From IMG/VR virus record IMGVR_UViG_3300008448_000246, positions 1-38,516 of that record: a stretch of 38,516 nt of DNA; one strand, 5' to 3'. The notes under the pieces were generated by a model that was not told where the DNA came from, did not search any database, and worked only from the letters and a program-made list of their open reading frames with translations. The stretch comes from a virus. Within the stretch, counting starts at the first letter, position 1, and each line of letters starts with the position of its first letter. Position numbers and translations under genes: made by a program. Positions 8,202-29,461 of the stretch are shown in pieces.

Positions 8202-11200
8202 ATGATAGAAACTGGTTTTGAGTATAGAGTAAAGATTCAACAAGTAGTTGAGAATCAACTTCCAGAATTTATTGTCGATGAAAATCCTACTGCCGTAGAA
8301 TTTTTTAAACAATATTACGTCTCGCAAGAATATCAAGGTGGAACTGTTGATATCGCAGAGAATTTAGATCAATATTTAAAATTAGACAATTTAACACCTG
8401 ATGTAATAGTTGGATTTACTACACTTTCCAACAATGTAAGCTCGAGTTCGGATATAATTCAAGTATCAAGTACTAAGGGATTTCCCCAAAGTTATGGATT
8501 ATTAAAAATTGACGATGAAATAATTACATATACTGGATTAACAACAAATACTTTTACTGGTTGTATTCGCGGATTTTGTGGTATTACAACTTATAATGAT
8601 GTTTTAAATCCTGGAGAGTTAGTTTTTTCGGAAAGTTCTGCATCCGAACATTCTGAATTATCACCTGTTCAAAACTTAAGTTCTTTATTCTTAAAAGAAT
8701 TTTATAAAAAGATTAAATATTCTTTAACACCAGGATTAGAGAATAAAGATTTTGTTTCTGAATTGAATGTTGGAAACTTTATAAAAGAAGCAAGAACTCT
8801 TTATCAATCAAAAGGAACTTCCGAATCATTTAGAATTTTATTCAAGATATTATTCAATGAATCTCCAAGAATTGTTGATCTGGAAAAATTTACAATTAAA
8901 CCTTCATATGCAACTTTTGTAAGAAGGGATGTAGTTGTTGCAGAAGTAATTTCTGGTGACCCATTAAATCTAAAAGGTCAAACAATATTTAAAACAACAG
9001 ATCCCAATACGTCAGCATCAGTTTCTGAAGTTGAATTAATTAGAAGAAAGGGTAAGTCATATTATAAATTACTACTTTTTGTGGGATATGACGATTCTGC
9101 TCCTACAATTACCGGAACATTTAATATTACAGGATCTACTAAGAATATAGACTACGTTTCTGCAGGTAGTTCCAGTATAATAGTTGATTCTACAATTGGA
9201 TTTCCTGATAGTGGAATAGTTTATACTGATAACAATACCATAGTTTATGGCAGTAAAAGTATTAACCAATTTTTCGAATGCTCTGGCATAAACGTTGGTA
9301 TTACTACAGCAGAAACAATATATTCAGAAGAAACATATTATGGATATGAAGATGGCAATACTGATAATAAAGTTGTAATTAGAATTTCTGGAGTTTTGTC
9401 CGAATTTGAAGCAGATCAATCAAGTACAACAGCATTAAGTATAGGTGAACAGATATATGTAAAAAATATTGGTGAAAAAATTAAAAATCCATCTTCAAAT
9501 AAAACATATAAAGAAATCTTTGCAAATAGTTGGATTTACAATACAAGCTCAAGATATTACATAGACACATTTGCCCCAGCCTCAACTCCAAACGGCACTC
9601 CTGTAACTACCAACCAATGTATTTTGGCAAGTTCTATTGACAAGTCAAGTTTGAAGGTGGGAGATTCTATTGATGTTCTTAATAGAGATTCTCAAACAAT
9701 AATTAAATCTAATATCAAAATTACTGCGATTAATGGAAATCAAATAACAACTAATTCATCATTTACCTTAACTAAGGGATCAAGTTATGATATTAGAAGA
9801 AGAATTAAGACTGCAAGTAGTTCGGTTGTTCCTCTTCAATTTAATAAAATAACATCAGATATTCAAAATGTATATAATGGTAATGATGATTACATTTATG
9901 TGGCATCAAATTCTTTCCCATCTTATACCATATCTAAAAAGATTTTTTCATATAATATAGTTAACGTTACAGACTTTGATTCGGAAACAGGAACTTATTC
10001 CACGTTAGTTTTTTCCCAACAAGTTTCTTTCTTAACTGGAAGCGAAGTATACTATACACATACAGATTCTCCCATAGAATCACTGAGTGAGGGTATATAT
10101 TATGTTCAAGTTTTGCCCGGAAATACACAGGTTAAATTATATGCTTCTAGATCTGTAATAGGTTCTTCAAACTATTTAACTTTTGGACAAGTTCTATCTG
10201 GAACTCATACTTTAACTTTAAATTCTCAAAGAGAAAGGATACTTTCTCCACAAAAAATATTAAGAAAGTTTCCATTATCTGTAAATTATGATACCGGAGA
10301 TCAGGAGATTGATTTCACTGAACCTGGTCCTGTAGGAATGTTGATTAATGGTGTTGAAATTTATGGATATAAATCTGAAAGTAAAGTTTATTATGGTCCA
10401 ATAGAATCGGTAAATGTTTTAAATGGTGGGACTGATTATGATGTAGTTAATCCACCCATACTGAATGTTTCTTCAGGCATAGCTTCAGTACGTCCTATTG
10501 TTAGTGGAAAAGTTGAAAGAATTTTTGTTGACCCTCAAGAATTTGACGTTGATGTCATAGTCTCTATTGCTATTACTGGTGGAAATGGTAAAGGAGCTTC
10601 ATTCGATCCTATTTTGGAGAGAAGACGGAGAGAAATTTCTTTTGATGCAAGATTATTAACAGATGAAGGTGGTGTTGATGTTGTTAATGATACGATAACA
10701 TTTTTGAATAATCATGGATTAATCAATGGACAACCAATAACTTACAGACCAGGATCGAATCAACCTCTAGGCGTAGCAACATTTTTAGGTGGAGATTCTA
10801 TTCAACCAGGCAATTTCCTAAAAGAAGAAACAGTTTACTATACAAAATTTATTAGTGATACAACAATTCAACTTTATCCTTCACTAAATGACTATAAGAT
10901 AGGAATTAATACGATTGGATTTTCGACCGCAGGAACTTCTGGTATACACAAATTTGCAACCGAACCAAGAAAAACCTTAACAGAAATTAAGGTAGTTGAT
11001 TCTGGAAGTGGATATACCAATAGAAAATTGAGCGTTCTCAGATCTGGAATATCCACCGTAGAGAATATAGTCTTATTCAATAATCATGGATTTAATGATG
11101 GAGATATAATTGTATATTCAAATACTGCTATTGGATCTTCAGTTGCTAGTCCTCTTTCCGGATTAACTACGACAAAACAATATTATGTTCTCAAATTAGA

Positions 11201-14200
11201 CAACAACAGATTTCAGTTAGCTGATGCTGGGATAGGAGCAACAACAACAATAAATTATCTTAGAAGAAAACCAGTAAGCTTTGGATCAACTGGAAATGGA
11301 TACCACAATTTCGCTTATCCAGATATAAGTTTAAAGGTAGACTACACTGCTGTTGGATTAGGTAGTACTCAATTTAGGGGATCTATATCAGCAACTCCTG
11401 TAGTAAAAGGTAGTATTATTGGAGCTTATACAATTAATTCTGGAATTGGTTATGGTTCAACAATAATAGATTATCACTTAAAACCAACAATTAATGTAAT
11501 AACTGGAAAAAATGCAGAAATTAGAGCAGTTGTTACAAATGGGTCAATAACAGATGTTTCTATTTCATATGGGGGTTTGGACTATTATTCAACCCCCACA
11601 ATAGAGATTACTGGTACGGGAAATGGTGCCATTTTAAAACCAGTAATTACTAACTACAGATTAACCGATGTTGTAATTATAAATGGTGGAAGTGGATACG
11701 ATAGTGCTACAAAATTAAAAGTGGTTTCTTCTGGAAAAAATGTAGCATTTGATCCTCAAGTAAGATCAATCACTATTAATAATAATATTGTAAATGATGA
11801 TATCACAGATAATCTTACATCTGCTAACGAATTAATAGTTTCTTCATATGAAAACTTACAATATGGAATATGTGGATATTCTGGTATAGTTCAAACTGAA
11901 TTTAATGATCTCGGAACAGCACATTCTCCAATAATTGGGTGGGCTTATGATGGAAATCCAATATATGGTGCCTATGGATATTCAGATCCTCAAAACAAAA
12001 ACTCAACTATTAAAAAATTAGTTTCTGGATATACTGCAAGTTTATCTAATATAGCAAATAGACCATCTGGATTTAATCTTGGATTTTTTATAGATGATTA
12101 TACCTTTACTGGAGGTGGAGATTTAGATCCATCAAATGGAAGATTTTGCGTTACCCCAGAATTTCCAGAAGGAGTTTATGCATATTTTGCAACTTCTGTT
12201 GTAGATGCTAATAATAATAAAGTGGGAAGTTTTCCATACTTTATTGGTGATAGGTATAAATCAAAATTTATTCAAGAAAACAAAACATTAAATCAGTCCA
12301 TAGATTTCAATAATTCAGGACTCATTCGAAATACATTCCCATACAAAGTTTCAGATCCATATGCAAATAATGACTTTTTAATCGAATCAAATGAGATTTT
12401 ATCACAAACAACAATTATTGAATCAGTAACTTCTGGATCTGTAGAAGGCATTTCAATCATTTCTTCTGGAGATGATTACAAAGTTGGGGATAATATTGTA
12501 TTTGATAACACAGATACTGGTGGTGGGGGATTGATTGCAGAAGTATCTAACATTAAAGGAGAAGAAATTACTCAAATAGATACTTCTACTTTGTCATATA
12601 ATAGTGCAGAATTTACTTGGAATAATGACGATTCAATTAGTGTAAAAATATCACCAAAACACGACTTAAAAAATCTTGATTATGTGAATATATCTGGATT
12701 TTCTACTTCACTTAGTTCTTTAAATGGATTTTATCAAGTTGGTATAAATTCATATACAACTGTCCTCATTCAGGAAGTTCCGGAATATCAACTTTCAGGA
12801 TTTGTCACAGATATTATTTTATCTACTTTACCACAAAGACTTTCTATAGGTAGTAGCATTGGTATTGGTACAGAAACTCTATCTATTTTAAATATCTTTG
12901 AATCTCAAAATATTCTTAGAGTTAGGAGAGGAACAACAGGAACTTCACATACAGCAGGTAAAATAGTTTACTTCAATCCTGACAGATTTACTTTTAACAA
13001 AAAAGTTGGATCATTTAAATCCATCGAGAAAAAGATAGTTTATTTTAATCCAGTATTTTCTGTGGGGGTAGGTACAACATCCGGCACCAGCACAACTGTC
13101 GATTATAATATTGGATTAACAACTAATCAGACTGTACAAATCCCATCCCAATCAATTTACTTACCGAATCACCCATTTGAAACTAATGATAGGGTTATTT
13201 TAAGAAGAGTATCTAGTGCTTCTTCAATTACAGTTCTTAATTATGGTGTTGGAATAGTATCCACTACATTCGAATTAATAGCAGGACTTGCTAGAACAGC
13301 ATTTGTAATTAAAAGATCTCCAGATTACATTGGTCTCGTGACTAGTGTTGGATTAGTGACTTCTACAAATGGATTGTATTTTGTTAATAATGGATCCAAT
13401 GATTACGAATATTCGATAGAAACAACATTGGATAACATAGTTGGAACTGTAGAAAGAATTACTTCAAATGTATCAGTATCAACTTCTCATAATTTGTCAA
13501 CCGGTGATCAAATAAGTTTATCAATTAAACCAAATATTACTGTTGGAATAGGAACCTCTGGTTCTATCCGAATACAAAGAGATCCACTTTCTGGTTATAT
13601 TTTAGTAAATCCGATTTTATTTGGATCATCATCTGTTAATACAACAAATGATACTTTTACTTTGGCGAATCATAATTTAAATACTGGAGATAAAGTAAAA
13701 TATACAGCAACCACACCAGCTGGTGGATTGACCAACAATATATTCTATTTTGTTTACAAACTAGACAATAATAGAATTAAAATATCAGAAACTATAGAAG
13801 ATGTTTTATCGGATCCTCCAATTACTATAGACATTACCAGTGCTGGTAGTGCAGGTGCAACATCGCAAAGTTTTTCATTAGTTAATCCACAATTAGTAGC
13901 AATAAAGAACAACAATCTTTTGTTTAATTTGAGAGACTCTTCTCTAAATGGATATCAATTTCAATTATTCTACGATCCTGCATTTAAAAATAGATTTGTT
14001 TCTGCTGGAGGAACTAGTGTATTCTCAACTTCTGGCGTTGGAACTCCAGGAATATCTACAAATGCTTCTTTACAACTCAATTTCAGTGAAAATGTTCCAA
14101 CCAAGTTATACTATGCTTTAAGTAAAACTGGATTTATCAGTACTGCAGATGTTTCTGTCAAAAATTATTCACAAATTAATTTTATTGATAGCTATTACAA

Positions 14201-17200
14201 TGGCAATTATCAAATTAATTCTATTGGTAGCACTCAATTTACTATATCCCTAAAAAATAATCCAGAAAGACCTTCATATATTAAATCTGAATGTGATTCT
14301 ATAGAATATAAAACCAATTCTTTGACTGCAAGTGGTGGAGTTTCCAAGATTAAAACACTCTCACCTGGATTTAATTACAAAAAATTACCTATATTCTCCA
14401 CAATTGAATCTGAAAGTGGTACTGGAGCATATCTTGTTGCAAATTCAACTAAGATTGGAAACATCAATCAAAGTAGAATTTTAAATGAAGGATTCGGATA
14501 TGCATCAGATAAAACGTTAAAACCTGAAGCTGACGTTTCAAAACTATTAAACTTAGATAATTTATTTACAATAGAGAGAGTAGATATTCTTGATCCAGGA
14601 AAAAATTATACAGCGTCCCCCAATTTAATAATTGTAGATACAACTACTGGCGAAAAAATAGATTCTGGATATTTATCTCCAAACTTTTTTGGAAATTCTA
14701 TTAGATCTGTTTCAATTGAGGTTCCACCAAAAGGTCTACCAGCCACTATAGTAACAATAAAAGCAGTTAATAATACCAATGGTGTGGGAATAAATTCCAT
14801 TTCCTCTTCAAATTCTGGAATAATTACATGCAAATTAGTTACTCCTTTATCTGGATTTGCGGAGGAACCATTTGAAGTTGGCGATAAGATTTACGTTGAA
14901 GGAATTGAAAAATATGGAGTTGATGGGCAAGGATTTAATTCTGAAGATTATGGATATCAGTTTTTTACAATAACTAGTTATGAAAATGCAGGAACATCTT
15001 TACCAAGAAATTTAGAGTTTAGTGTAGTTGGTCTCGGAACCACTACAAATCCAGGAATAGCAAAAACATCTACGGATATTTACGGTTTTGTAATAAATTA
15101 CAAAAATTATCCAAAATTTAATGCCGTACAAAAATATGCTGATTTTATAAAAGGTGAATATTTAGAAGTTAAAAATAGTAGTGGAGTTTATCAACTACAG
15201 GATTTAAGAATAACAGAAACATCTGGAAGTACAATTAAAGTTGCAGGATCTTATGATATTTTATTAAATGATCATATAAGAGGAAATCAGTCTGCAACAA
15301 AAGCTATAATTAATGATATAAGTGCAACGAGTGGTAAATTTAACGTTGATTATGCATCTAGACAAAAGCTAGGATGGTCAGATGATATTGGAAAACTCAG
15401 TGAAGATACTCAGGTCATATCTGACAATGACTATTATCAAAATCTTTCATATAGTATAAAGAGTAAAAAAACATGGGAAGATATTGTAAGTCCAGTCAAC
15501 AATTTATTACATTCCGTTGGATTAAAAAACTTTTCTGATACGGAAATTTCCAATAATGTTGGACTTGGAACAACTGCAACTGAAGAATACTTATCAATTT
15601 TATATGATGTTATAAACGAAGAAAATGTCACTACAATTTCAAATTTTGATTTAGTTAGAGACATTGATACAAATATATCACAAAGTAGTTCTAGATTTGT
15701 GATTTTTGATAATAAAAGATTGGCAAACTATGTGGCAGCTGAATCTAATAGAGTATTGAGTATTGATGATATTAGTCCATTATTTTCAAGCACAAATCAA
15801 GATGTTGCTACTTCTTCAAAAATTACGACGATAGTTCCTAGCGATAAATTTAATTCATATTTGGTTCAAATTAAAAATAAAGATGGTTCAACGTCTCAAT
15901 TGACAGAGACTATTGTTTTGACAGATAATGCTGGTATAACTGGAGAACCAAATGTATATTCTTTTGAAAGGGGATCTTTATCTACAGGAATTACAACTGA
16001 AATTGGATATACTTCAAATTCAATAGGAGAAATTTATGGTGAAGTTGATGAATTAAATAATCATTACTTAAAGTTTGTACCCAATGATCCATATAATAGC
16101 ACATATGATATCAAATTTTTAAATACTAAATTCCCATCTTCAGATGTTGGCGTTGGGTCCACAACAATTGGTTTTATTACCCTATCTGGAATCACATCTA
16201 CAGTTGGTGCAGGATCTACCTTTAGTTTAATTAATCAAGGTCAGTCTACAATAAGATCTGCGTTTTCTCAGATCCATATAACTGATAATGTGACTAATAA
16301 AATGAATTACTATGAATTTTTCTTAGATAATACAAATGGTGTTGATACAAATTTAGGAGAATTTTATTTTGACACCGAAGAAGATACTAGCACACAATCT
16401 ATAGGAATATTTACTGCTTCTTTATCAAGTGGTATTGTTTCCTTTACCTATACAAACAATACAACAAATTCAGTAACTGTTAGATCAAAGATTGTTGGAT
16501 TTGGAGCAACGGCACTTGGAATAGGTACATATAGATTTAAATCGGATGGTCAACCAGATGAAGACGAGAGAACTATTAGTTTAGGTTCAAGTTTTACAAG
16601 AGTTTCTTCATCTTCTACAGTATTTTCCTATAATACGGATTTATACACATCGGCAAAGTCAATCATCAAAATAAGTGTAGGATCGACTAGTGCTTTACAC
16701 CAAGTATTGACTACTGTAGATTTAAATGATGTGTATACTTATCAATATCCATTTATATCTGCAGGAAGTACAACTGGTATAGGAACATTTGGAGGCAGGA
16801 GAAATGGAAATATTGCATCACTAATTTTTTATCCAGATACAAATCTTTCTGGCATTAGCACGACAACAACTTATGAAATATTAAGTTATAATTGTGTCTT
16901 TTATTCTGAAAGTGATTTTATTAATTTACCTCAAAATTTAACATATAAAAATGTTTCTGAATCGGTAGGTATTACTAAGTTTTATGCGGTTAACGATAAA
17001 GAAATTAATAGACTTAATTTTGAAGCATATTATAATCAAACTCCAATATTCATGAAGGAGTTTAATCCTGCCAATACGACAATATTAAATAAATCAACAG
17101 GAACATTTACAATCAATAACCATTTCTTTAATACTGGAGAAAAAATATATTATAGACCAAAATCAACTTTTGTTTCAGTTTCAGCATCCCCTGTAAGTAT

Positions 17201-20200
17201 TGGCGCAACAACTGATTATTTGGGATTCGTCACAAACATTATGCCTCCTGTTGTTTGGGCAATTAGAATTGATAATGATTCATTCCGATTAGCAGCAACA
17301 TTAAATGATGCATTATCTGGAATTGCTATAACATTTACATCTGAAGGATCTGGTAATGCACATGAATTGGAAATGGAAAAGAAAGTTGAAAAAACTATTA
17401 TATCAATTAATAATATAATTCAAAGTCCAATATCATATACAAAATTAAATTACACTCTTGATAATTACGGATCTATCGGAACAGCTTCAACAATTTTCAA
17501 ACTTAGTGGAATTAATTCAATTCGTATTAGTGATATTTTAAAAGTTGATAATGAATATATGAAGGTAGTAAATCTTGGACTTTCAACAACTCCAACTGGT
17601 CCAATTTCTTTTGCTGGAACTTTCCCATTAATTCAGGTTGAAAGAGGATTTGTTGGCACTTCAGCATCAACTCATGTAGATTTTAGTAATGTTTCTCTCT
17701 ATAGAGGATCATATGGCATTAATAAAAATACTATATGGTTTACTGAGCAACCAGAGGGTAATTTACAAGACCAATTATTTTCAGATTTAGACAATCTTCC
17801 AGAGTCTAGAGCATATTTTAATGGAAGAGTTTTCTTAAGAAAAGATTATACCACAAATATAATATATGACGATATTTCTGAAGAATTTAATGGGATAGGA
17901 AGAACTTATACTTTAACAATAAATGGTATTAATACATCTGGATTAGGATCCGATGGATCTAATGGTATTGTTATACTTAATGGAATATTCCAAACCCCAA
18001 CTACACAAAATAACCCAGCAAACAATTACAGCATTGTTGATAATACTACCTTTACTCAGGATCCATTTGCACCATATTATCTTAGACCAGATGAATATAC
18101 TGGATTTAGTGCTGGTCTTACTACCAATCCAGAGTTCACATCCGAAGTTGGTATTAGTAGTATCGTTTTTGCAGGAATTACTTCAGCTGGAACCGGAGAT
18201 TATATAACTTCACCATCTGATGTTAATTTAAATGAAGTTCCTAGGGGTGGTATTATTGTATCATTAGGATCCACTCCAGGACTTGGTTATGCGCCTTTAG
18301 TGGGAGCAAAAGTTAAAGCTACAGTTGGTGCTGGAGGAACCATAACAAATGTTGTTGGAATTTCTTACACAGGACCTTCTGTTGGAGTTAATACTGCTTT
18401 TTATGACCATGAAACTGGAGTAATTACAATAAGAACTTCAGTGGACCATGGTTTAATTGAAAACGATAGAGTTAGATTAGTGGGATTTGCATTTACGTGC
18501 CCTTCTGGTGCAGGAGTAGTTTCATATTTCCCATCACCTAAATTTGGCGCATATTTGTGGGAGGTTACTGGAATTCTCTCGTCTAGAGGATTTACCGCTA
18601 ATGTTGGAACAAGTACATTGCCACACACCTATGTTGGATCCGCATCCCTTGGATTTGGCACTGTATTCCCATGGTATAACTTAAATATTGGATCTGGATA
18701 TAGATCACCAGTATCAATAGCAATATCAGCACCAGTTGGATCTGGAGCAACAATATCTGCAACAGTAGGTGCAGGAGGTACATTATCATTTACTGTAGTT
18801 AATCCAGGATCTGGATACACTTCCATTGGATCAAGTGCTCCTAAATTTTATATTGCTCCACCAAACTATGAGAATCTTGAAGTAGTTGGTGTCTCTAGAC
18901 TGAGTGTAGGTTCAACAACAGATTGTGGATTTGGGTTGCTATTAAATCTTGAAGTTGGAGCAGCCTCAACAACTGGTGTTGGATCTTCTGATTTATTTGA
19001 GGTTAAAAATTTCAAGATTGCAAGAAATGGTTATGGATTCCAACGGGGAGATGTTATTAAAGCTGTTGGACTTGTAACTGCTAAAGGATTAGGAGCTCCT
19101 ATAAAAGAATTCCAATTAACAGTTTTGAAAACTTTCTCAGATTCTTTCTCATGTTGGCAATTTGGCGAAATGGATTATATTGACTCTATTGCCAGTTATC
19201 AAGATGGATCTAGAACAAGATTCCCATTATATTATAACAATGAATTAATAAGTATTGAACAAGGAGACTCACCAGAGTCGGTATTAATTGACTTTGATTC
19301 TTTATTAATTGTTTTTATTAATGGAATATTACAAGAACCTAAAGTTTCTTATGCATTTGAAGGTGGAAGTGCTATAGAATTTACACAAGCCCCTAGACCT
19401 GAAGATAAGGTATCAATATTTTTCTACAGGGGAAGTGATGCTGATAGTAGAGTTTATAATGTAATAGAAACTATAAAAGATGGAGATATTGTTCAAATAT
19501 TTTCAAATAATACTTTATCGGGAGTGACTACCACTCAAGAAGAAAGAACCGTAACCGAAATTTTATTCTCGGATAAAATTCAAACAGATCTTTATATCGA
19601 TCAAGGAGTGGATATTGTCAATAATAAACCAATTTATTGGACTAAGCAAAACACCGATAAAGTTATAGACGGTAAAATAATTTCAAAAGCAAGAGATTCT
19701 ATAGAACCACAAATTTATCCAACAGCAAGAATTATTAAAACCTTTGACAGTTTGTCTAATGAATTGTGGGTAGATAATGCCGAATTTTTCAATTATGAAA
19801 ATGTTGATGTTAATGAATTCTCATGTTCTGGATTAATAGTTACTGGTGAAGATGATCCAGTCGGAGCTGCAGCTAGTGCTACTGTTAATGCGAGTGGTAG
19901 AATTAGTGCGATTTCAATAACGAGTGCTGGTAGTGGATATTTTTCTTTGGGTCCAGCTGGAACAACTGTTCAACTGGAAATTGCAGCACCCACAAAAGTT
20001 GGAGTTGGTATTGGATCAACAGCAATTGGATACGCTGTAGTCAGTTCTACTGGGACAGTTACTGGTCCTGTTGTATCTTTCAGTGGTCTTGGATATACAT
20101 CCACTAATCCTCCAAGAATAATTGTTGAAAAACCTGTACCAGCATATGAATTCATTACTGAAATAACAACAGTTGAGGGATTTTCCGGAACTATTACAAA

Positions 20201-20660
20201 TATTGCAACTTGTCCAGGTATAGGAACAGCATTGGCAATTCAGTTTATATTGAGTCCAACAATGTCTCCATTCCCAAATTTAAATGTCGGAAATCCAGTT
20301 TATGTTTTTGATACTTATGTTGGAAGAGGAGTGACTTCAATTTATACTAATGATAGTGAAAGAATTGGAATAGGAACAACTTTTGCAGATTGCATTTATA
20401 ACGTAAGTGCATTTGATCCTTCTAGCGGAATTCTTACATGCAATATATTATCAACAACAAATGTATCTGGATTAATTACTTCTGGACCTATAGCCGGAAA
20501 AATTTCTTGGGGGAGATTGGCTGGATTTGAAAGAGGATCTGGTCCTATAGGAATAGCTCTTACTGGATATAGAGTTTCTGCGGGGCTCTCTACATTCCCA
20601 ACAATACAAAGAAGAGGTACAGGATTACGTAACATTGGAGGTTTAAAAAAGATCTTATAA
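8202..20660 (+). CDS. Giant baseplate protein at the gp7 position, 4152 aa
   Basis: A single uninterrupted frame between gp6 and gp8, where T4 has gp7 (1032 aa). Residues 1-330 (FEYRVKIQQVVENQLPEF, FFKQYYVSQEYQGG, YLKLDNLTPDVI) look like the wedge-anchoring N-terminus of cyanophage gp7-type proteins. The remainder is beta-rich and repetitive. About 15 GxGY/GxxY modules occur near residues 740, 930, 1076-1160, 1420, 2050-2130, 3355, 3495-3530, 3610 and 3906-3960. About nine 'NHxLxxGDxIxY' modules lie between 590 and 3400. Two NGxxQxP tail-fibre-like modules are near 3250 and 3700. A YHYH-like domain is at about 1235-1355 (GWAYDGNPIYGAYGY, then TPEFPEGVYAYFAT and FPYFIGD). It is likely a wedge protein carrying a long peripheral, perhaps receptor- or polysaccharide-contacting, extension. 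The gp7 identity is by position and N-terminus; the rest is inference. Confidence 0.8.
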   Translation: MIETGFEYRVKIQQVVENQLPEFIVDENPTAVEFFKQYYVSQEYQGGTVDIAENLDQYLKLDNLTPDVIVGFTTLSNNVSSSSDIIQVSSTKGFPQSYGLLKIDDEIITYTGLTTNTFTGCIRGFCGITTYNDVLNPGELVFSESSASEHSELSPVQNLSSLFLKEFYKKIKYSLTPGLENKDFVSELNVGNFIKEARTLYQSKGTSESFRILFKILFNESPRIVDLEKFTIKPSYATFVRRDVVVAEVISGDPLNLKGQTIFKTTDPNTSASVSEVELIRRKGKSYYKLLLFVGYDDSAPTITGTFNITGSTKNIDYVSAGSSSIIVDSTIGFPDSGIVYTDNNTIVYGSKSINQFFECSGINVGITTAETIYSEETYYGYEDGNTDNKVVIRISGVLSEFEADQSSTTALSIGEQIYVKNIGEKIKNPSSNKTYKEIFANSWIYNTSSRYYIDTFAPASTPNGTPVTTNQCILASSIDKSSLKVGDSIDVLNRDSQTIIKSNIKITAINGNQITTNSSFTLTKGSSYDIRRRIKTASSSVVPLQFNKITSDIQNVYNGNDDYIYVASNSFPSYTISKKIFSYNIVNVTDFDSETGTYSTLVFSQQVSFLTGSEVYYTHTDSPIESLSEGIYYVQVLPGNTQVKLYASRSVIGSSNYLTFGQVLSGTHTLTLNSQRERILSPQKILRKFPLSVNYDTGDQEIDFTEPGPVGMLINGVEIYGYKSESKVYYGPIESVNVLNGGTDYDVVNPPILNVSSGIASVRPIVSGKVERIFVDPQEFDVDVIVSIAITGGNGKGASFDPILERRRREISFDARLLTDEGGVDVVNDTITFLNNHGLINGQPITYRPGSNQPLGVATFLGGDSIQPGNFLKEETVYYTKFISDTTIQLYPSLNDYKIGINTIGFSTAGTSGIHKFATEPRKTLTEIKVVDSGSGYTNRKLSVLRSGISTVENIVLFNNHGFNDGDIIVYSNTAIGSSVASPLSGLTTTKQYYVLKLDNNRFQLADAGIGATTTINYLRRKPVSFGSTGNGYHNFAYPDISLKVDYTAVGLGSTQFRGSISATPVVKGSIIGAYTINSGIGYGSTIIDYHLKPTINVITGKNAEIRAVVTNGSITDVSISYGGLDYYSTPTIEITGTGNGAILKPVITNYRLTDVVIINGGSGYDSATKLKVVSSGKNVAFDPQVRSITINNNIVNDDITDNLTSANELIVSSYENLQYGICGYSGIVQTEFNDLGTAHSPIIGWAYDGNPIYGAYGYSDPQNKNSTIKKLVSGYTASLSNIANRPSGFNLGFFIDDYTFTGGGDLDPSNGRFCVTPEFPEGVYAYFATSVVDANNNKVGSFPYFIGDRYKSKFIQENKTLNQSIDFNNSGLIRNTFPYKVSDPYANNDFLIESNEILSQTTIIESVTSGSVEGISIISSGDDYKVGDNIVFDNTDTGGGGLIAEVSNIKGEEITQIDTSTLSYNSAEFTWNNDDSISVKISPKHDLKNLDYVNISGFSTSLSSLNGFYQVGINSYTTVLIQEVPEYQLSGFVTDIILSTLPQRLSIGSSIGIGTETLSILNIFESQNILRVRRGTTGTSHTAGKIVYFNPDRFTFNKKVGSFKSIEKKIVYFNPVFSVGVGTTSGTSTTVDYNIGLTTNQTVQIPSQSIYLPNHPFETNDRVILRRVSSASSITVLNYGVGIVSTTFELIAGLARTAFVIKRSPDYIGLVTSVGLVTSTNGLYFVNNGSNDYEYSIETTLDNIVGTVERITSNVSVSTSHNLSTGDQISLSIKPNITVGIGTSGSIRIQRDPLSGYILVNPILFGSSSVNTTNDTFTLANHNLNTGDKVKYTATTPAGGLTNNIFYFVYKLDNNRIKISETIEDVLSDPPITIDITSAGSAGATSQSFSLVNPQLVAIKNNNLLFNLRDSSLNGYQFQLFYDPAFKNRFVSAGGTSVFSTSGVGTPGISTNASLQLNFSENVPTKLYYALSKTGFISTADVSVKNYSQINFIDSYYNGNYQINSIGSTQFTISLKNNPERPSYIKSECDSIEYKTNSLTASGGVSKIKTLSPGFNYKKLPIFSTIESESGTGAYLVANSTKIGNINQSRILNEGFGYASDKTLKPEADVSKLLNLDNLFTIERVDILDPGKNYTASPNLIIVDTTTGEKIDSGYLSPNFFGNSIRSVSIEVPPKGLPATIVTIKAVNNTNGVGINSISSSNSGIITCKLVTPLSGFAEEPFEVGDKIYVEGIEKYGVDGQGFNSEDYGYQFFTITSYENAGTSLPRNLEFSVVGLGTTTNPGIAKTSTDIYGFVINYKNYPKFNAVQKYADFIKGEYLEVKNSSGVYQLQDLRITETSGSTIKVAGSYDILLNDHIRGNQSATKAIINDISATSGKFNVDYASRQKLGWSDDIGKLSEDTQVISDNDYYQNLSYSIKSKKTWEDIVSPVNNLLHSVGLKNFSDTEISNNVGLGTTATEEYLSILYDVINEENVTTISNFDLVRDIDTNISQSSSRFVIFDNKRLANYVAAESNRVLSIDDISPLFSSTNQDVATSSKITTIVPSDKFNSYLVQIKNKDGSTSQLTETIVLTDNAGITGEPNVYSFERGSLSTGITTEIGYTSNSIGEIYGEVDELNNHYLKFVPNDPYNSTYDIKFLNTKFPSSDVGVGSTTIGFITLSGITSTVGAGSTFSLINQGQSTIRSAFSQIHITDNVTNKMNYYEFFLDNTNGVDTNLGEFYFDTEEDTSTQSIGIFTASLSSGIVSFTYTNNTTNSVTVRSKIVGFGATALGIGTYRFKSDGQPDEDERTISLGSSFTRVSSSSTVFSYNTDLYTSAKSIIKISVGSTSALHQVLTTVDLNDVYTYQYPFISAGSTTGIGTFGGRRNGNIASLIFYPDTNLSGISTTTTYEILSYNCVFYSESDFINLPQNLTYKNVSESVGITKFYAVNDKEINRLNFEAYYNQTPIFMKEFNPANTTILNKSTGTFTINNHFFNTGEKIYYRPKSTFVSVSASPVSIGATTDYLGFVTNIMPPVVWAIRIDNDSFRLAATLNDALSGIAITFTSEGSGNAHELEMEKKVEKTIISINNIIQSPISYTKLNYTLDNYGSIGTASTIFKLSGINSIRISDILKVDNEYMKVVNLGLSTTPTGPISFAGTFPLIQVERGFVGTSASTHVDFSNVSLYRGSYGINKNTIWFTEQPEGNLQDQLFSDLDNLPESRAYFNGRVFLRKDYTTNIIYDDISEEFNGIGRTYTLTINGINTSGLGSDGSNGIVILNGIFQTPTTQNNPANNYSIVDNTTFTQDPFAPYYLRPDEYTGFSAGLTTNPEFTSEVGISSIVFAGITSAGTGDYITSPSDVNLNEVPRGGIIVSLGSTPGLGYAPLVGAKVKATVGAGGTITNVVGISYTGPSVGVNTAFYDHETGVITIRTSVDHGLIENDRVRLVGFAFTCPSGAGVVSYFPSPKFGAYLWEVTGILSSRGFTANVGTSTLPHTYVGSASLGFGTVFPWYNLNIGSGYRSPVSIAISAPVGSGATISATVGAGGTLSFTVVNPGSGYTSIGSSAPKFYIAPPNYENLEVVGVSRLSVGSTTDCGFGLLLNLEVGAASTTGVGSSDLFEVKNFKIARNGYGFQRGDVIKAVGLVTAKGLGAPIKEFQLTVLKTFSDSFSCWQFGEMDYIDSIASYQDGSRTRFPLYYNNELISIEQGDSPESVLIDFDSLLIVFINGILQEPKVSYAFEGGSAIEFTQAPRPEDKVSIFFYRGSDADSRVYNVIETIKDGDIVQIFSNNTLSGVTTTQEERTVTEILFSDKIQTDLYIDQGVDIVNNKPIYWTKQNTDKVIDGKIISKARDSIEPQIYPTARIIKTFDSLSNELWVDNAEFFNYENVDVNEFSCSGLIVTGEDDPVGAAASATVNASGRISAISITSAGSGYFSLGPAGTTVQLEIAAPTKVGVGIGSTAIGYAVVSSTGTVTGPVVSFSGLGYTSTNPPRIIVEKPVPAYEFITEITTVEGFSGTITNIATCPGIGTALAIQFILSPTMSPFPNLNVGNPVYVFDTYVGRGVTSIYTNDSERIGIGTTFADCIYNVSAFDPSSGILTCNILSTTNVSGLITSGPIAGKISWGRLAGFERGSGPIGIALTGYRVSAGLSTFPTIQRRGTGLRNIGGLKKIL

Positions 20661-22270: not shown

Positions 22271-25200
22271 ATGGCTCAAAAAACTAATTTAAATGTAAGT
22301 CCTTATTTTGATGATTTCAATGAACCTATTACTGGGGCGAGGGACAATAATTATTACAAGGTCTTATTTAATCCAGGTAAGCCAATACAGGCAAGAGAAT
22401 TAAATACTTTACAATCAATATTACAAGATCAAGTAGAGTCATTTGGTAGCCATATTTTTAAAGAGGGATCCTTAGTTATTCCAGGAAATATTGCATATGA
22501 TAATCAATTTAGTGCAGTAAAACTTAATCCAACGCAGTATGGAGTAGATATAACTTCATACCTGTCCAATTTTATCGGAAAAACAATTATAGGGCAAGTT
22601 TCTGGAATTAGTGCAAGACTTGTATATGTTCAAGATGTAAATTCCGATGTAGAATATCCAACAATATATGTAAAATACTTAGATTCTGATGCTAATAATT
22701 TAATTTCTCCCTTTGAGGATGATGAATCTTTATATGTAAACGAATCTGTTGGTAATATAGGATCCGGTGTTCCATTTGCAACTACAATTGTATCTGATGC
22801 AACTTCAACAGGATCATCCGCATCTATTGGAGAGGGTGTTTACTTTGTTAGAGGGACATTTGTAAGAGTTGAAAAGCAAACTTTAATATTAGACTATTAT
22901 ACAAATATGCCCACTTATAGGGTGGGTTTATCTGTAGTTGAAGAAATCATTACCGCAAAGGATGATGAAAATTTATATGATAATGCAAGTGGATTTACAA
23001 ATTATGCAGCTCCAGGAGCAGATAGATTTAAAATATCTTTAATTCTTACTAAAAAATCTATAGATGACATCAATGATGTTGATTTTGTCGAATTACTGAG
23101 AGTTAGAAATGGATCCATTCAAAAAATGGATGTGCAGTCATCATATAATTTAATTAGGGATTGGATTGCAAAAAGAACTTATGATGAATCCGGAAATTAT
23201 GTTATAGATCCTTTTGAATTTTCCATAAACAATTCTTTAAATGATAGGATTGGAAATGATGGATTATATTTTGATACTGAAAAAACCGAACAGGGAAATA
23301 TTCCATCTGATGATTTGATGTGTTTAAAATTATCACCAGGTAAGGCTTATGTAGAAGGATATGATATAGAAAAAACGGGAACAGAAGTACTTGATTTTGA
23401 TAAACCAAGAACTACCCAAACTGTCTCCTCAGTAAATATCCCATTCCAAATGGGAAATATACTGAGAGTTAATAATGTAACTGGAGCACCAGCTATAAGA
23501 GGAATTGTTTTCCTACAAAATAGAAGAAAAAATAGTACTATAGCTGGAGCAGGTACAACTATAGGTGCTGCAAGAGTTTATAGTTTTAGCGTAACTGACG
23601 CAGCATATCTGGGATCCCCTACGATATGGGATTTATATCTATATGATATTCAAACATTTACAGAACTTACTATAAACCAATCAGTTTCTTCAGTAGAACT
23701 GCCAGCAACTTCATTTATAAAAGGTAAAAGTAGTGGTGCAACTGCATATACCGTTTCTTCTGGTGGTAGTGGAACTAATACATTAATTTTAAGACAAACT
23801 TCGGGAACTTTTATAATTGGAGAACAAATTTTAATTAATGGAACTGAATTATATCCAAGATCTATTTCTGGAATAAAAGCATATAATGCAAATGATATAA
23901 AATCATTGTATCAACCATCAGCTGTTAGTGGATTTTCGACAGCATTTGTGGCAGATTCGTATTTAGAAAAATTTGCAAGACCGGAAATAATTACGATTAC
24001 TCCTGGAATTGGTGGCATCTCGACTGCAACTGTTGCATCTCCAGCAACTTTTACCGGAATAAAAACAGATGATATTATTAGATATCAGAGACCAGGCATA
24101 ACATCAGAAATTTATAACAGAGTTAGCGGAATTTCGAGTAGTCTAACATCACTAACATTAGTTGCAGAAACTAGTGTTAGTGGAGTTTGTGATGGTACAT
24201 TGGGAATTTCTACACTATACAGTGGTCCATATTCAGTTGGAATCGCTAGAATTAGAAATGACCAACAGGGATTTTTATATGCAAGACTACCAAATGATAA
24301 TGTTTCATCAATTAATTTAAATTTTTCAAATATAACATTCACTGCCCAAAATAATACATCATTTACACCTACAGTGACTGGAAATACCTTAACGGTAGAT
24401 GTGGGTAATTTTAATATTGGTATTACTTCTGCGGTTATAGATTTTGCAGCATTCGATGAAGAAAGATATTCGATAATGTATAATGATGGTAGTATAGAAA
24501 CCTTATCAGCTGATAAGGTTTCTATTACATCAAATCCTAGTAGAGTCACTTTTTCCAATATTCAGAATAAAACAATATCGGTAATTAATGCAACTTTTAT
24601 CAAAAATAATTTACAAAGTAAAATTAAACAATTTGTAAGAAGTAGAACTTTAAATGTAATTTATTCCAAAAACCCAGAGTCTGGTACGGGAATTAATACA
24701 ACATCAAATGATGGACTTATATATAACCAATTTTATGGTTTAAGAGTTCAGGATGAAGAAATTTCTCTCAATTATCCAGATGTAGTATCTGTTCTCGCTG
24801 TTTATGAATCTTTAGATACAAATGCACCAACTTTAGATCAATTAGCGTTTAGTGCTGTAGTTAATGTTGACGCTAACGCTATTATTGGGGAAAAGATCGT
24901 AGGTCAAACAAGCAAAGCAGTCGCAAGAATTGTATCAAAACCATCTTCTAATAATTTAGGTATTGTATACTTAAATTCATCACAGTTTATTGCAGGAGAA
25001 ACTGTTACTTTCAGTGAATCTGATATTACTACCACAATATCATCCATAACTTTAGGTAAATACAGTAATATTACTACTAAATTTACTCTAGATAAAGGTC
25101 AGAAAGAGCAATATTATGATTATTCGAGAATTGTAAGAAGATCCGGAGAAAATTCACCATCTAGACAATTACTAATAGTATTCGATCATTATAGTGTCCC

Positions 25201-28200
25201 AACATCAGATACTGGAGACATTTTTACAGTTAACAGTTATTCTGCAGAAAGATTCTCAACGGACATTCCAAGTATAGGATTCAATAATACTAGAGCATCA
25301 GATACATTAGATTTTAGACCGTATGTTGGTGTTTTTTCTGGAACTACATCATCGCCATTTGAATTTTCCTCCAGATCATTTGGCGCGGAACCAAAGTTAA
25401 TAGTTTCTCCTGATGAAAGTGGTTTAGTTGGATATCAGTTTTATTTGGGGAGAATTGACAAACTTTATATTGATAAAAAAGGATCTTTCACTCTCCTTCA
25501 AGGTACACCTGCACCAGATCCAAAAGAACCAAGTAATCCAAATAATGTAATGGAAATCGCTACCATTACATTGCCCCCATACTTATATAATCCAGCAGAT
25601 GCTCAAGTATCTCTTAATGATAATAGAAGATATACAATGAGAGATATTGGAAAACTTGAAGATAGAATTGAAAATTTAGAAAAAACAACATCGTTAAGTT
25701 TGTTGGAGTTAAATACATCAACTTTACAAATTCAAGATGCTAATGGGTTAACTAGATTTAAATCTGGATTTTTTGTAGATGATTTTAAAAATTATGATTT
25801 AATTGACAACAGATATTCAAAAATAAGAATAGATGAGCAAAATACACAGTTATGCACACAAGAAACTAGAAATAGTATAAATTTAAGACCAGTTCCAGCA
25901 ACTAATGCTCCAGATAGCACTATTGATCTAAATTCAAATTATAGTTTAGTAGATAATAATGTAAAGAAAGTTGGAGATGGTATACTTTTAAACTACGAAT
26001 CGGTAGCATGGTTAAATCAACTTTTTGCTACTAAAGTAGAAAATGTTAACCCATTCCATGTAATTTCATACAGTGGAACCGTAAAATTAAATCCATCTTC
26101 AGATAGTTGGGTTAGAACAATTCGATTAGCAGATTTAACTGTAAATCAAACTAACTGGCAATGGTTATATGCTACCGGAACATTTTCCATTGTTGGAAGT
26201 AGCACTAATACTAGTGTTCAAGATGTCCTAAGAGCGAGCGGAAAAGAATCTTACATGAGATCCCGTAATACGGGATTTACCGCCGTGAATATGAAACCAT
26301 TTACAAGATTATATCAATTTTTAGATGGAACAAGCGGAGTAGACTTTATTCCCAAACTTATTGAAATTGCATCAGACACATCTTTACAAAATTATGGTGC
26401 ATCTGGAGCATTCACTGTAGGAGAAACTGTAAAAGGATATGTAAATGGAAATGTCCAAATTTCCTTTAGGGTTGCAAAATCTAATCATAAAGAAGGATCC
26501 TATAATGACCCATCTGTGACTTATAGCACCAATCCATACTCCACAAACGAATCTATACCTGCATCATACAGTGCATCATCCAAAGTGCTAAACGTTGATA
26601 TCGATGCCTTATGCACTGCCGCTCAAGGTCTTTATAATGGTTATTTGACAGTTGGCATGAAGTTAGTTGGACAATCTAGTGGATCTGTTGCTTACGTAAA
26701 AGATCTAAGACTTATTACAGATTTAAATGGATTTATTTCAGGATCATTCTTTTTGAGAGATCCAAATACAAATCCACCCCCTGCAGTAAGAATTGCAACA
26801 GGATCAAAAGTTTATAAATTAACTTCAAGTTCCACAAATGCAACGCCATTGCCTGGAAGCACATTGATTTGCTCTGGAGAAACAATTTATAAGGCTGAAG
26901 GAACCTGGGAAGAAAGGCAAAAAGTAACTACGGTCACAACAACAATATATTATGTTGATCCATTAGCACAATCATTCTCTGTTGGCGGAAATGTGGAAGC
27001 AGCAAATGGAAATGTTCCAGGTGAAGACGTAAATGGAGCATTTTTAACTGCAGTAGACTTATACTTTGCTAGCAAAGATGGTGGAAATGCCCCATTAACG
27101 GTTGAAGTTAGAACAGTAAGTCTTGGTACTCCAACTAGAGAAGTATTGGGATCTAAAACCTTATTACCAAATAATATTTTAACTTCTAATGATTCATCAG
27201 TAGCAACTAATGTTGTTTTTGATACTCCAATATATTTAAAACCATTTGAAGAATATGCAATTGTACTTCTTGCACCACAAACTGATCAATATGAAGTTTG
27301 GATTGCAGAGATGGGGCAAAAAACTATCAATACAGCTTCACTACCAGATTCACAAGCTGTTAGATATACACAACAATTTGCTATTGGAAGTCTATTTAAA
27401 TCTCAAAATGGAACAATTTGGACTGCAAATCAATATCAGGATTTGAAGTTTAGATTATATAAAGCAAAATTTACATCAACAACTGGCAGTGCTTTATTTT
27501 CAAATCCAACTTTACATCAAAGTAATGGATATGTGCCAGTTTTATCATCCAACCCAATTACTGTTCTGCCAAGAAAATTAAAAGTTGGAATTACAACTAC
27601 AGATAATACCTCAATTATCGGAATATTAACTACAGGTAGAAAAATTACGGTCCAATCTGCAACTTATCTTTCTGGTACAATTACTGGAACAGGATCTTCT
27701 GCGGTTACGGTAGCAATTACCACAAGCGGGTCTAATTATACAACAGGATCGGTTCAAACTTTTAACTATAATGGTGATGGAACTGGATTAAGATTAAATA
27801 TTACTGCGACAGGTGGGGCAATTACTGGTGTTGGCGTTTCTCAGTCATTCCCAGGAAATGGATATAAAGTTGGAGATGTAGTTGGAATTGTAACTAGTAG
27901 CGTTTCACCAGCATCTGGATCTGGAGCCCGTATTACTATAACCAGTGTTGCAAATAAAATAGATACTTTATACCTCACAAATGTTCAAGGAGATTCACTT
28001 AACGTTGGTGTTGCAACTCTAGGATATTATAATACCTCCGGAACATTAGTATCTCTCGGTAGTACCACAATTTTATCTTCCGCAAACTATGGTAATTATA
28101 GTACTGGCAATTATTTCCAGGTGAACCACTATGATCATAGCATGTATGCTAAAAATAATAAAATTACTCTTTATAATGTACGATCTGATTTTGCGCCAAC

Positions 28201-29461
28201 AACACTATCATTAAAGTTAACAACGTCATTATCTGCAATCAGTATTGCATCTACTACCAATTTTGGAACTTTTGAGGGATTGCCAGTAAGCAATGTGAAT
28301 CCAGGATTTGTACTTATAGAAGACGAGATAATTAAATATACTTCTGTCGGGGTTGGACAACTGTTAGGAATTACCAGAGGTATAGATTCTACTGTCATTG
28401 TAGACCATGAGTTGTCTACATTAGTTTATAAGTACGAACTTGCTGGTGTTTCATTAAAGAGAATTAATAAAACTCATACTATTTCTAGCAGCGGAATTGA
28501 CATTGATGGATATTATCTTGAATTTGATAGAACAAGTTTCGATTCGAATACTACAAATAGAAGTATAGATCAAGGATCTTCGGGATCACCAGCAGATTCT
28601 CCACAATTATCATTTAATCGTGAAGAAGTATGTGGAGGATCGGCAGTTGAAGCTACGGAAAATATTCAATATGAAATAATTAATCCACATTCTGCATCTA
28701 TATCTCCAGAAAATGGCACTTCAATTTCTGCCGAAATAAGAACAACAAGTGGCACAAGTGCAAATGGAACAGAAACTTCATTCAATGATTTACAATATGA
28801 ACCTGTTAAGTTGGATGTACCAAATGCACTAACTTCAACAAGACTGGTTTGTTCTGGAATTAATGAACAAACATATTTAAGTTCTAGAAAATCTTTTACC
28901 TTAAAGGTTAATTTATCCACAGAAGATCCTAATGTATCACCAATGCTTTTATGGAAAAATACAACAGGAGAATTTATTGGAAGTAGGTTAAATAGACCAA
29001 TTGTAGATTATGTTGGTGATGCTAGAGTTAATCAATTTGTAGGGGATCCACATGCCGCAATATACGTTTCGAATTTAGTAAGACTCAAACAGGCAGCAAC
29101 TTCACTAAAAGTGATTGTAAGTGCGTATAGACATAACTCAGCAGATTTTAGAGTTCTTTACAGTTTAATTAGACCAGACTCTAGTGAAATTGGACAAGCA
29201 TTTGAATTTTTCCCTGGTTATCCAAACTTAACTACGGACCAAAGTTCAGATGGATTTTTAGATGTAATTAATCCCGCAAGAAATAGTGGATTACCTGATG
29301 TATTAGTTACTCCAAGTTTGCTGAATGAATTTAAGGATTATGAGTTTAGTGCTAATAATTTGGGAATTTTTACAGGATATCAAATAAAAATAGTGATGTC
29401 AGGAACAAATTCTGCATACCCCCCAAGATTTAGAGATTTGAGGAGCATTGCTTTAGCATAA
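22271..29461 (+). CDS. DUF4815-containing virion structural protein, 2396 aa
   Basis: The N-terminal third begins with the strongly conserved cyanophage/T4-like segment NLNVSPYFDDFNEP, YYKVLFNPGKPIQARELN, FGSHIFKEGSLVIPG, the DUF4815 type found in large tail or baseplate proteins. About residues 1115-1160 hold a short coiled coil (DIGKLEDRIENLEKTTSLSLLEL) followed by FKSGFFVDDFKNYDL. Residues 1580-1780 form another conserved block (DPLAQSFSV, then FKSQNGTIWTANQYQDLKF). GxGY-like segments occur at about 1810-1895. The C-terminus (FTGYQIKIVMSGTN, PPRFRDLRSIALA) is the family's usual ending. The location after gp8 is where T4 has gp9/gp10, so it may be the functional counterpart of gp10, but homology to gp10 cannot be shown here. 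It contains a 32-bp perfect palindrome at codons 742-752. Confidence 0.85.
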   Translation: MAQKTNLNVSPYFDDFNEPITGARDNNYYKVLFNPGKPIQARELNTLQSILQDQVESFGSHIFKEGSLVIPGNIAYDNQFSAVKLNPTQYGVDITSYLSNFIGKTIIGQVSGISARLVYVQDVNSDVEYPTIYVKYLDSDANNLISPFEDDESLYVNESVGNIGSGVPFATTIVSDATSTGSSASIGEGVYFVRGTFVRVEKQTLILDYYTNMPTYRVGLSVVEEIITAKDDENLYDNASGFTNYAAPGADRFKISLILTKKSIDDINDVDFVELLRVRNGSIQKMDVQSSYNLIRDWIAKRTYDESGNYVIDPFEFSINNSLNDRIGNDGLYFDTEKTEQGNIPSDDLMCLKLSPGKAYVEGYDIEKTGTEVLDFDKPRTTQTVSSVNIPFQMGNILRVNNVTGAPAIRGIVFLQNRRKNSTIAGAGTTIGAARVYSFSVTDAAYLGSPTIWDLYLYDIQTFTELTINQSVSSVELPATSFIKGKSSGATAYTVSSGGSGTNTLILRQTSGTFIIGEQILINGTELYPRSISGIKAYNANDIKSLYQPSAVSGFSTAFVADSYLEKFARPEIITITPGIGGISTATVASPATFTGIKTDDIIRYQRPGITSEIYNRVSGISSSLTSLTLVAETSVSGVCDGTLGISTLYSGPYSVGIARIRNDQQGFLYARLPNDNVSSINLNFSNITFTAQNNTSFTPTVTGNTLTVDVGNFNIGITSAVIDFAAFDEERYSIMYNDGSIETLSADKVSITSNPSRVTFSNIQNKTISVINATFIKNNLQSKIKQFVRSRTLNVIYSKNPESGTGINTTSNDGLIYNQFYGLRVQDEEISLNYPDVVSVLAVYESLDTNAPTLDQLAFSAVVNVDANAIIGEKIVGQTSKAVARIVSKPSSNNLGIVYLNSSQFIAGETVTFSESDITTTISSITLGKYSNITTKFTLDKGQKEQYYDYSRIVRRSGENSPSRQLLIVFDHYSVPTSDTGDIFTVNSYSAERFSTDIPSIGFNNTRASDTLDFRPYVGVFSGTTSSPFEFSSRSFGAEPKLIVSPDESGLVGYQFYLGRIDKLYIDKKGSFTLLQGTPAPDPKEPSNPNNVMEIATITLPPYLYNPADAQVSLNDNRRYTMRDIGKLEDRIENLEKTTSLSLLELNTSTLQIQDANGLTRFKSGFFVDDFKNYDLIDNRYSKIRIDEQNTQLCTQETRNSINLRPVPATNAPDSTIDLNSNYSLVDNNVKKVGDGILLNYESVAWLNQLFATKVENVNPFHVISYSGTVKLNPSSDSWVRTIRLADLTVNQTNWQWLYATGTFSIVGSSTNTSVQDVLRASGKESYMRSRNTGFTAVNMKPFTRLYQFLDGTSGVDFIPKLIEIASDTSLQNYGASGAFTVGETVKGYVNGNVQISFRVAKSNHKEGSYNDPSVTYSTNPYSTNESIPASYSASSKVLNVDIDALCTAAQGLYNGYLTVGMKLVGQSSGSVAYVKDLRLITDLNGFISGSFFLRDPNTNPPPAVRIATGSKVYKLTSSSTNATPLPGSTLICSGETIYKAEGTWEERQKVTTVTTTIYYVDPLAQSFSVGGNVEAANGNVPGEDVNGAFLTAVDLYFASKDGGNAPLTVEVRTVSLGTPTREVLGSKTLLPNNILTSNDSSVATNVVFDTPIYLKPFEEYAIVLLAPQTDQYEVWIAEMGQKTINTASLPDSQAVRYTQQFAIGSLFKSQNGTIWTANQYQDLKFRLYKAKFTSTTGSALFSNPTLHQSNGYVPVLSSNPITVLPRKLKVGITTTDNTSIIGILTTGRKITVQSATYLSGTITGTGSSAVTVAITTSGSNYTTGSVQTFNYNGDGTGLRLNITATGGAITGVGVSQSFPGNGYKVGDVVGIVTSSVSPASGSGARITITSVANKIDTLYLTNVQGDSLNVGVATLGYYNTSGTLVSLGSTTILSSANYGNYSTGNYFQVNHYDHSMYAKNNKITLYNVRSDFAPTTLSLKLTTSLSAISIASTTNFGTFEGLPVSNVNPGFVLIEDEIIKYTSVGVGQLLGITRGIDSTVIVDHELSTLVYKYELAGVSLKRINKTHTISSSGIDIDGYYLEFDRTSFDSNTTNRSIDQGSSGSPADSPQLSFNREEVCGGSAVEATENIQYEIINPHSASISPENGTSISAEIRTTSGTSANGTETSFNDLQYEPVKLDVPNALTSTRLVCSGINEQTYLSSRKSFTLKVNLSTEDPNVSPMLLWKNTTGEFIGSRLNRPIVDYVGDARVNQFVGDPHAAIYVSNLVRLKQAATSLKVIVSAYRHNSADFRVLYSLIRPDSSEIGQAFEFFPGYPNLTTDQSSDGFLDVINPARNSGLPDVLVTPSLLNEFKDYEFSANNLGIFTGYQIKIVMSGTNSAYPPRFRDLRSIALA
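24494..24525 (+). repeat. Perfect 32-bp palindrome inside a coding region
   Basis: Each arm is 16 bases with no spacer; the left arm is ATAGAAACCTTATCAG and the right arm is its exact reverse complement. It is in frame and encodes I-E-T-L-S-A-D-K-V-S-I; the opposite strand reads the same core peptide (IETLSADKVSI). As RNA it would fold into a hairpin of about 14 bp with the minimal loop AGCU. Confidence 0.95.

What the first reader, a model, noticed from the sequence alone, without database searches (positions are those of the whole stretch)
24494..24525. Perfect 32-bp palindrome inside the DUF4815 virion gene
A spacer-free palindrome with 16-bp arms has a chance expectation of roughly one in 4^16 per position, far below one in this window. 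It is in frame and encodes a peptide that fits the surrounding beta-rich sequence, and both strands encode IETLSADKVSI. Possible meanings: a binding or cutting site for a dimeric protein, an mRNA hairpin for pausing or RNase processing of a 7-kb message, or the scar of a template-switch event. Because it lies within codons, synonymous choices must have been used to complete the symmetry.
Basis: seen in the sequence. Interest (0 to 1): 0.75.

Follow-up and report, generated by a model that had tools for sequence, protein, structure and literature searches.

The report
Coding palindrome in cyanophage-like virion gene
A perfect 32-base palindrome really does lie inside a phage structural gene, but it belongs to one viral lineage, sits where the protein sequence already forces near-symmetry, and is best read as a mutational by-product rather than a working element.

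Summary
The palindrome is real. ATAGAAACCTTATCAG/CTGATAAGGTTTCTAT lies at 24494-24525, has perfect 16-bp arms and no spacer, and is in frame (codons 742-752 of a 2396-aa T4-like virion protein). The next longest perfect palindrome in the window has 10-bp arms. A second contig, 99.9% identical but with 14 SNPs, carries it unchanged, so an assembly error is unlikely.

It is not conserved. Among about 75 related contigs none keeps the symmetry; the closest (84% DNA identity) has 12/16 pairs, the next 9 and 8. There is no compensatory covariation, so a conserved binding site or processing hairpin is not supported.

The site is primed by the protein. The motif IExL(S/T)(S/A)DKV makes relatives average 8/16 pairs against a gene background peaking at 4. 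Given the peptide, codon choice alone gives the perfect palindrome 0.6% of the time.

Best reading: a neutral, lineage-specific completion of a protein-coded quasi-palindrome, most likely by template-switch correction, a process first proposed in phages. Ordinary substitutions converging by chance is the main rival; the event itself could not be shown. Close inverted repeats exceed synonymous-shuffle expectation about 1.5-fold in genes of related phages. New member of a known kind; low interest.

The parts
24494..24525 (.). perfect 32-bp palindrome, 16-bp arms, no spacer
   Evidence: present unchanged in L003
24494..24509 (+). left arm; carries three bases found in none of the six close relatives (24496 A, 24502 C, 24509 G), each complementary to a right-arm base that at least one close relative has
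24510..24525 (+). right arm; one base found in no close relative (24522 C), complementary to a left-arm G that all of them have
24494..24526 (+). conserved peptide motif IExL(S/T)(S/A)DKV(S/T)(I/L), here IETLSADKVSI, whose codons are near-palindromic
22271..29461 (+). host gene: 2396-aa T4-like virion protein with DUF4815 (PF16075, phrog_358)

Best explanation
A conserved peptide motif in this virion protein happens to be written in codons that form a quasi-palindrome throughout the family. In the lineage of this virus the two arms have become perfectly complementary. The most likely route is quasi-palindrome correction during DNA replication: the nascent strand folds back or switches template and one arm is copied from the other, fixing several mismatches at once, including the base that gives Ala instead of Ser at the centre. 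The result is tolerated because the protein accepts it, and there is no need for a function of the symmetry. Shown: the perfect palindrome, its lineage restriction, the protein priming, and a group-wide excess of close inverted repeats in coding DNA. Inferred: the template-switch event itself, its direction, and neutrality.
For: Relatives average 8.0/16 pairs at this centre, the same as independent resampling of their codon columns (8.1); the 16-arm pairing distribution across the window's gene peaks at 4. In the closest relative's gene (L085) this centre is the best of about 7,160 (12/16), so a quasi-palindrome exists in the sister lineage. All four bases that are unique to the window within its clade complete pairs; three lie in the left arm and match right-arm bases already found in the clade. 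In 0.98 Mb of non-redundant genes of related phages, inverted repeats with arms of 8 bp or more exceed synonymous-codon shuffles 1.49-fold at spacers 0-8 and 1.70-fold at 9-17, but only 1.16-fold at 30-38, 1.08-fold at 100-108, and 1.11-fold for mirror repeats. For arms of 13 or more: 6 observed, 1.3 expected. The folding excess is nearly equal on sense and antisense strands, as a DNA-level process would give. Template switching at quasi-palindromes was first proposed in bacteriophages, with T4 rII as an example, and makes such sites more perfect (PMC7202029, PMC8604942).
Against: No single one-directional copy explains all differences: 24522 C needs the opposite direction or a separate substitution. 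The site does not carry an unusual burst of lineage-specific changes (4 against a mean of 2.7 per 32 nt; 28% of windows have 4 or more). A direct scan for reverse-complement copying between close relatives is equivocal: excess at length 9 (45 against 22.8 far control and 17 mirror) but not at 10 or more. No intermediate between about 84% and 99.9% identity was found to place the event.
Confidence: 0.6

Rival explanations
1. Ordinary point substitutions completed the palindrome by chance at a site already primed by the protein motif; no template switch was involved.
For: The number of lineage-specific changes is ordinary. Given the peptide, codon choice alone yields the full palindrome with probability 0.006. 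Such sites are noticed only when perfect, and a genome scan reads many windows, so there is a selection effect.
Against: Evolving the nearest relatives' motifs with observed codon exchange gives 16/16 with frequency 0 to 1.8e-5; resampling codon columns gives 5e-7. Close inverted repeats exceed synonymous shuffles in this phage group.
Confidence: 0.27
2. The palindrome is a selected element of this lineage: a binding or cutting site for a dimeric protein, or an mRNA hairpin that pauses, protects or is processed.
For: The RNA hairpin is strong (14 bp, -22.9 kcal/mol against a shuffled mean of -6.2), and the palindrome is unchanged in a second contig with 14 SNPs over 14.6 kb.
Against: Absent in every more distant relative read; no convincing covariation; no run of U after the stem, so not an intrinsic terminator; no Rfam match; the 14-bp arm occurs nowhere else exactly in the window. 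The 20-nt core is found in no other viral contig, and the 22-nt core in one bacterial contig only, as a hairpin followed by a T-rich run. One unchanged 32-bp stretch at 0.1% divergence says nothing about constraint.
Confidence: 0.1
3. Assembly or sequencing artefact: two unrelated ends joined through a palindromic k-mer.
For: A 32-bp perfect palindrome is a fold-back node for assemblers using short k-mers (general knowledge, not tested here).
Against: The reading frame and homology run straight through on both sides, and a separate contig with 14 differences has the same sequence.
Confidence: 0.03

Closest known systems
Quasi-palindrome correction by template switching (T4 rII, E. coli thyA and rpsL; S. 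cerevisiae coding genes, PMC8604942)
   Same: imperfect inverted repeat in a coding gene becomes perfect, with both silent and amino-acid changes; first proposed in phages
   Different: here only the product is seen; the single mutational step and the parental sequence are not observed
Coding palindromes of Nematomorpha mitochondrial genes (PMC6649704)
   Same: perfect inverted repeats inside genes with both arms coding; gained and lost between species; template switching proposed as one possible mechanism
   Different: those are numerous and reach up to 284 bp; this one has 16-bp arms and is isolated
PNP..GFG palindromes in the baseplate wedge gene of related phages (L150, L133, L153)
   Same: perfect arms of 14-15 bp at a peptide whose codons are near-palindromic
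   Different: another gene, other phages; the window has no such perfect palindrome there

Membership tests
quasi-palindrome corrected by template switch | quasi-palindrome present at the same site in close relatives | tested here: met
   12/16 in L005-L007, the best centre of the whole L085 gene
quasi-palindrome corrected by template switch | lineage-specific changes increase arm complementarity | tested here: met
   all four clade-unique bases complete pairs
quasi-palindrome corrected by template switch | several changes arise in one event, explained by copying one arm | tested here: inconclusive
   three of four fit right-to-left copying; no parental sequence; no excess of changes
conserved functional RNA hairpin or processing site | pairing kept across relatives by compensatory changes | tested here: not met
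intrinsic terminator | stem followed by a run of T | tested here: not met
   stem followed by TACATCAAATCC, inside the ORF
operator or recombination site for a dimeric protein | recurs at other sites in the genome or in relatives | tested here: not met
   (the genome record is a 38.5-kb fragment)
operator or recombination site for a dimeric protein | binding or cleavage by a protein | not testable with these tools
   needs bench work
coding palindrome (Nematomorpha type) | many long perfect coding inverted repeats in the same genome | tested here: not met
   only this one above 10-bp arms in the window

The most novel reading that the evidence does not exclude
Structural genes of T4-like cyanophage relatives are reshaped often enough by replication template switching that perfect coding palindromes of about 30 bp arise repeatedly at peptide motifs whose codons are near-palindromic (IExLxxDKV in the DUF4815 gene, PNP..GFG in the baseplate wedge gene), changing amino acids as a side effect.
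Probability: 0.25. Interest if true: 0.45.

Novelty: new member of a known kind. Interest (0 to 1): 0.2.

Why it matters
It shows how an apparently improbable 32-bp palindrome in a gene can arise without function: the protein motif supplies half or more of the symmetry and a known mutational process, or chance, supplies the rest. If template switching is the cause, phage virion genes would offer natural examples of multi-base, protein-altering mutations from a process first described in phages.

Tried and rejected
Assembly error: rejected through the second contig. Conserved RNA structure: no convincing covariation (one search used a mistyped structure and is ignored). Intrinsic terminator, Rfam family, tRNA: none. 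Repeated operator in the genome or other viruses: none. The single bacterial match of the 22-nt core is a hairpin followed by a T-rich run in a Paceibacterota MAG, unrelated. A Markov null for palindrome counts was replaced by synonymous codon shuffles with distance and mirror controls. The first codon-exchange simulation took wrong reading frames and was redone. The window's strongest hairpins look weaker in relatives, but the reciprocal comparison shows mostly the same for relatives' hairpins, so most of this is regression to the mean. PDB search found no solved relative of the stretch around the palindrome.

Full report
What is there. The window is a 38.5-kb virus record with T4-like tail, baseplate and neck genes; the nearest isolates by DNA over this gene are Synechococcus phages S-SRM01 and S-SKS1 at about 66% identity. 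The ORF 22271-29461 encodes a 2396-aa virion protein with DUF4815 matches. At 24494-24525 the sequence ATAGAAACCTTATCAGCTGATAAGGTTTCTAT equals its reverse complement. It is in frame and codes IETLSADKVSI with the next base. The next longest perfect palindrome has 10-bp arms.

Is it an artefact? A second public contig (L003, 15.7 kb) matches the window at 99.90% over 14.6 kb with 14 substitutions and has the same 32 bases. Reading frame and homology continue on both sides. An assembly error is therefore unlikely.

Is it more than chance? Base composition alone gives 3.3e-5 per window, but the right null keeps the protein. Given IETLSADKVSI, random codons by the window's usage give the full palindrome with probability 0.006; no other peptide in 28 kb of its coding sequence has a chance above one in a million. 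The relatives' motif variants that I tested cannot code a perfect palindrome. Resampling codons column by column from relatives gives 16/16 in 5e-7 of draws. Evolving the nearest relatives' motifs with observed codon exchange gives 0 to 1.8e-5. So it is unlikely at this site, yet within reach of a scan over many windows.

Relatives. Of 566 related stretches the best 80 were kept and read. At the homologous codons L005-L007 have 12/16 pairs, L008 9, L009-L011 8, and two more distant contigs 13; none but L003/L004 (one contig) is perfect. The average among distinct relatives is 8.0, against a gene background that peaks at 4. Shuffling the 3' letters leaves the paired fraction unchanged (61.1% observed, 60.4% shuffled), and the covariation score is only slightly high (20 of 500 shuffles reach it), within what relatedness alone can give. 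The symmetry is thus inherited from the amino-acid motif and not kept as nucleic-acid structure. In L085, the same centre is the best quasi-palindrome of the whole gene.

What differs. A tree places the window with L005-L007, then L008, L010 and L011, in a clade with full support. Within that clade four bases in the palindrome are unique to the window: 24496 A, 24502 C, 24509 G and 24522 C. All four complete pairs. Three lie in the left arm and match right-arm bases present in the clade; the fourth lies in the right arm and matches a left-arm base present in all. One of them (24509) makes the Ala where the close relatives have Ser. The count of four is ordinary for 32 nt of this gene (mean 2.7), so there is no mutational burst.

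Group-wide context. In 0.98 Mb of non-redundant genes of related phages, close inverted repeats exceed synonymous-codon shuffles by 1.5 to 1.7-fold, falling to 1.1-1.2 at larger spacing, with mirror repeats at 1.1. Arms of 13 or more number 6 against 1.3 expected, three of them at one other site where the peptide PNP..GFG codes a quasi-palindrome. Folding excess is similar on both strands (-0.63 and -0.52 kcal/mol per 60 nt). This is what quasi-palindrome correction is expected to leave, although weak selection for local structure cannot be excluded. A direct scan for reverse-complement copying between close genomes was equivocal.

Interpretation. Template switching at quasi-palindromes makes them more perfect, was first proposed in phages with T4 rII as an example (PMC7202029; PMC8604942), has been inferred to change coding genes in yeast (PMC8604942), and has been proposed for perfect coding palindromes in hairworm mitochondria, whose repeats also come and go between species (PMC6649704). 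The case here fits that kind. The rival, convergence of ordinary substitutions at a primed site, cannot be excluded because no intermediate sequence was found and the direction of copying is mixed. A selected function is the least likely of the biological readings.

Verdict. Observation confirmed; functional readings not supported; a template-switch scar or chance completion at a protein-primed site. New member of a known kind, interest 0.2.

Noticed in passing
window 24149-24183: A second strong hairpin in the same gene (15 pairs including two G-U, 5-nt loop, SLTLVAETSVSG); partly kept in close relatives.
   Followed up: partly
window 23428-23466: A hairpin around CCCATTCCAAATGGG with an extended stem; the 60-nt window at 23426 folds 5.7 sd better than synonymous shuffles; its core is also present in L085 and L090.
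   Followed up: partly
L150:9070-9099, L133:2066-2095, L153:8493-8526: Perfect inverted repeats with 14-15 bp arms at the homologous place of the baseplate wedge gene in three other phages, over the peptide PNP..GFG; where L150 and L133 differ in the arms, both partners differ together.
   Followed up: partly
L182:5235-5256: The palindrome's 22-nt core occurs in one contig of the genome collection, a Paceibacterota MAG, as a hairpin followed by a T-rich run.
   Followed up: partly
window 8202-20660: A 4152-aa baseplate-wedge-like virion protein (phrog_2885), unusually long.
   Followed up: no
window 22271-29461, residues 1536-1738: This part of the protein resembles a solved DUF4815 virion protein (PDB 9euf and others, E 1.6e-35).
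   Followed up: no
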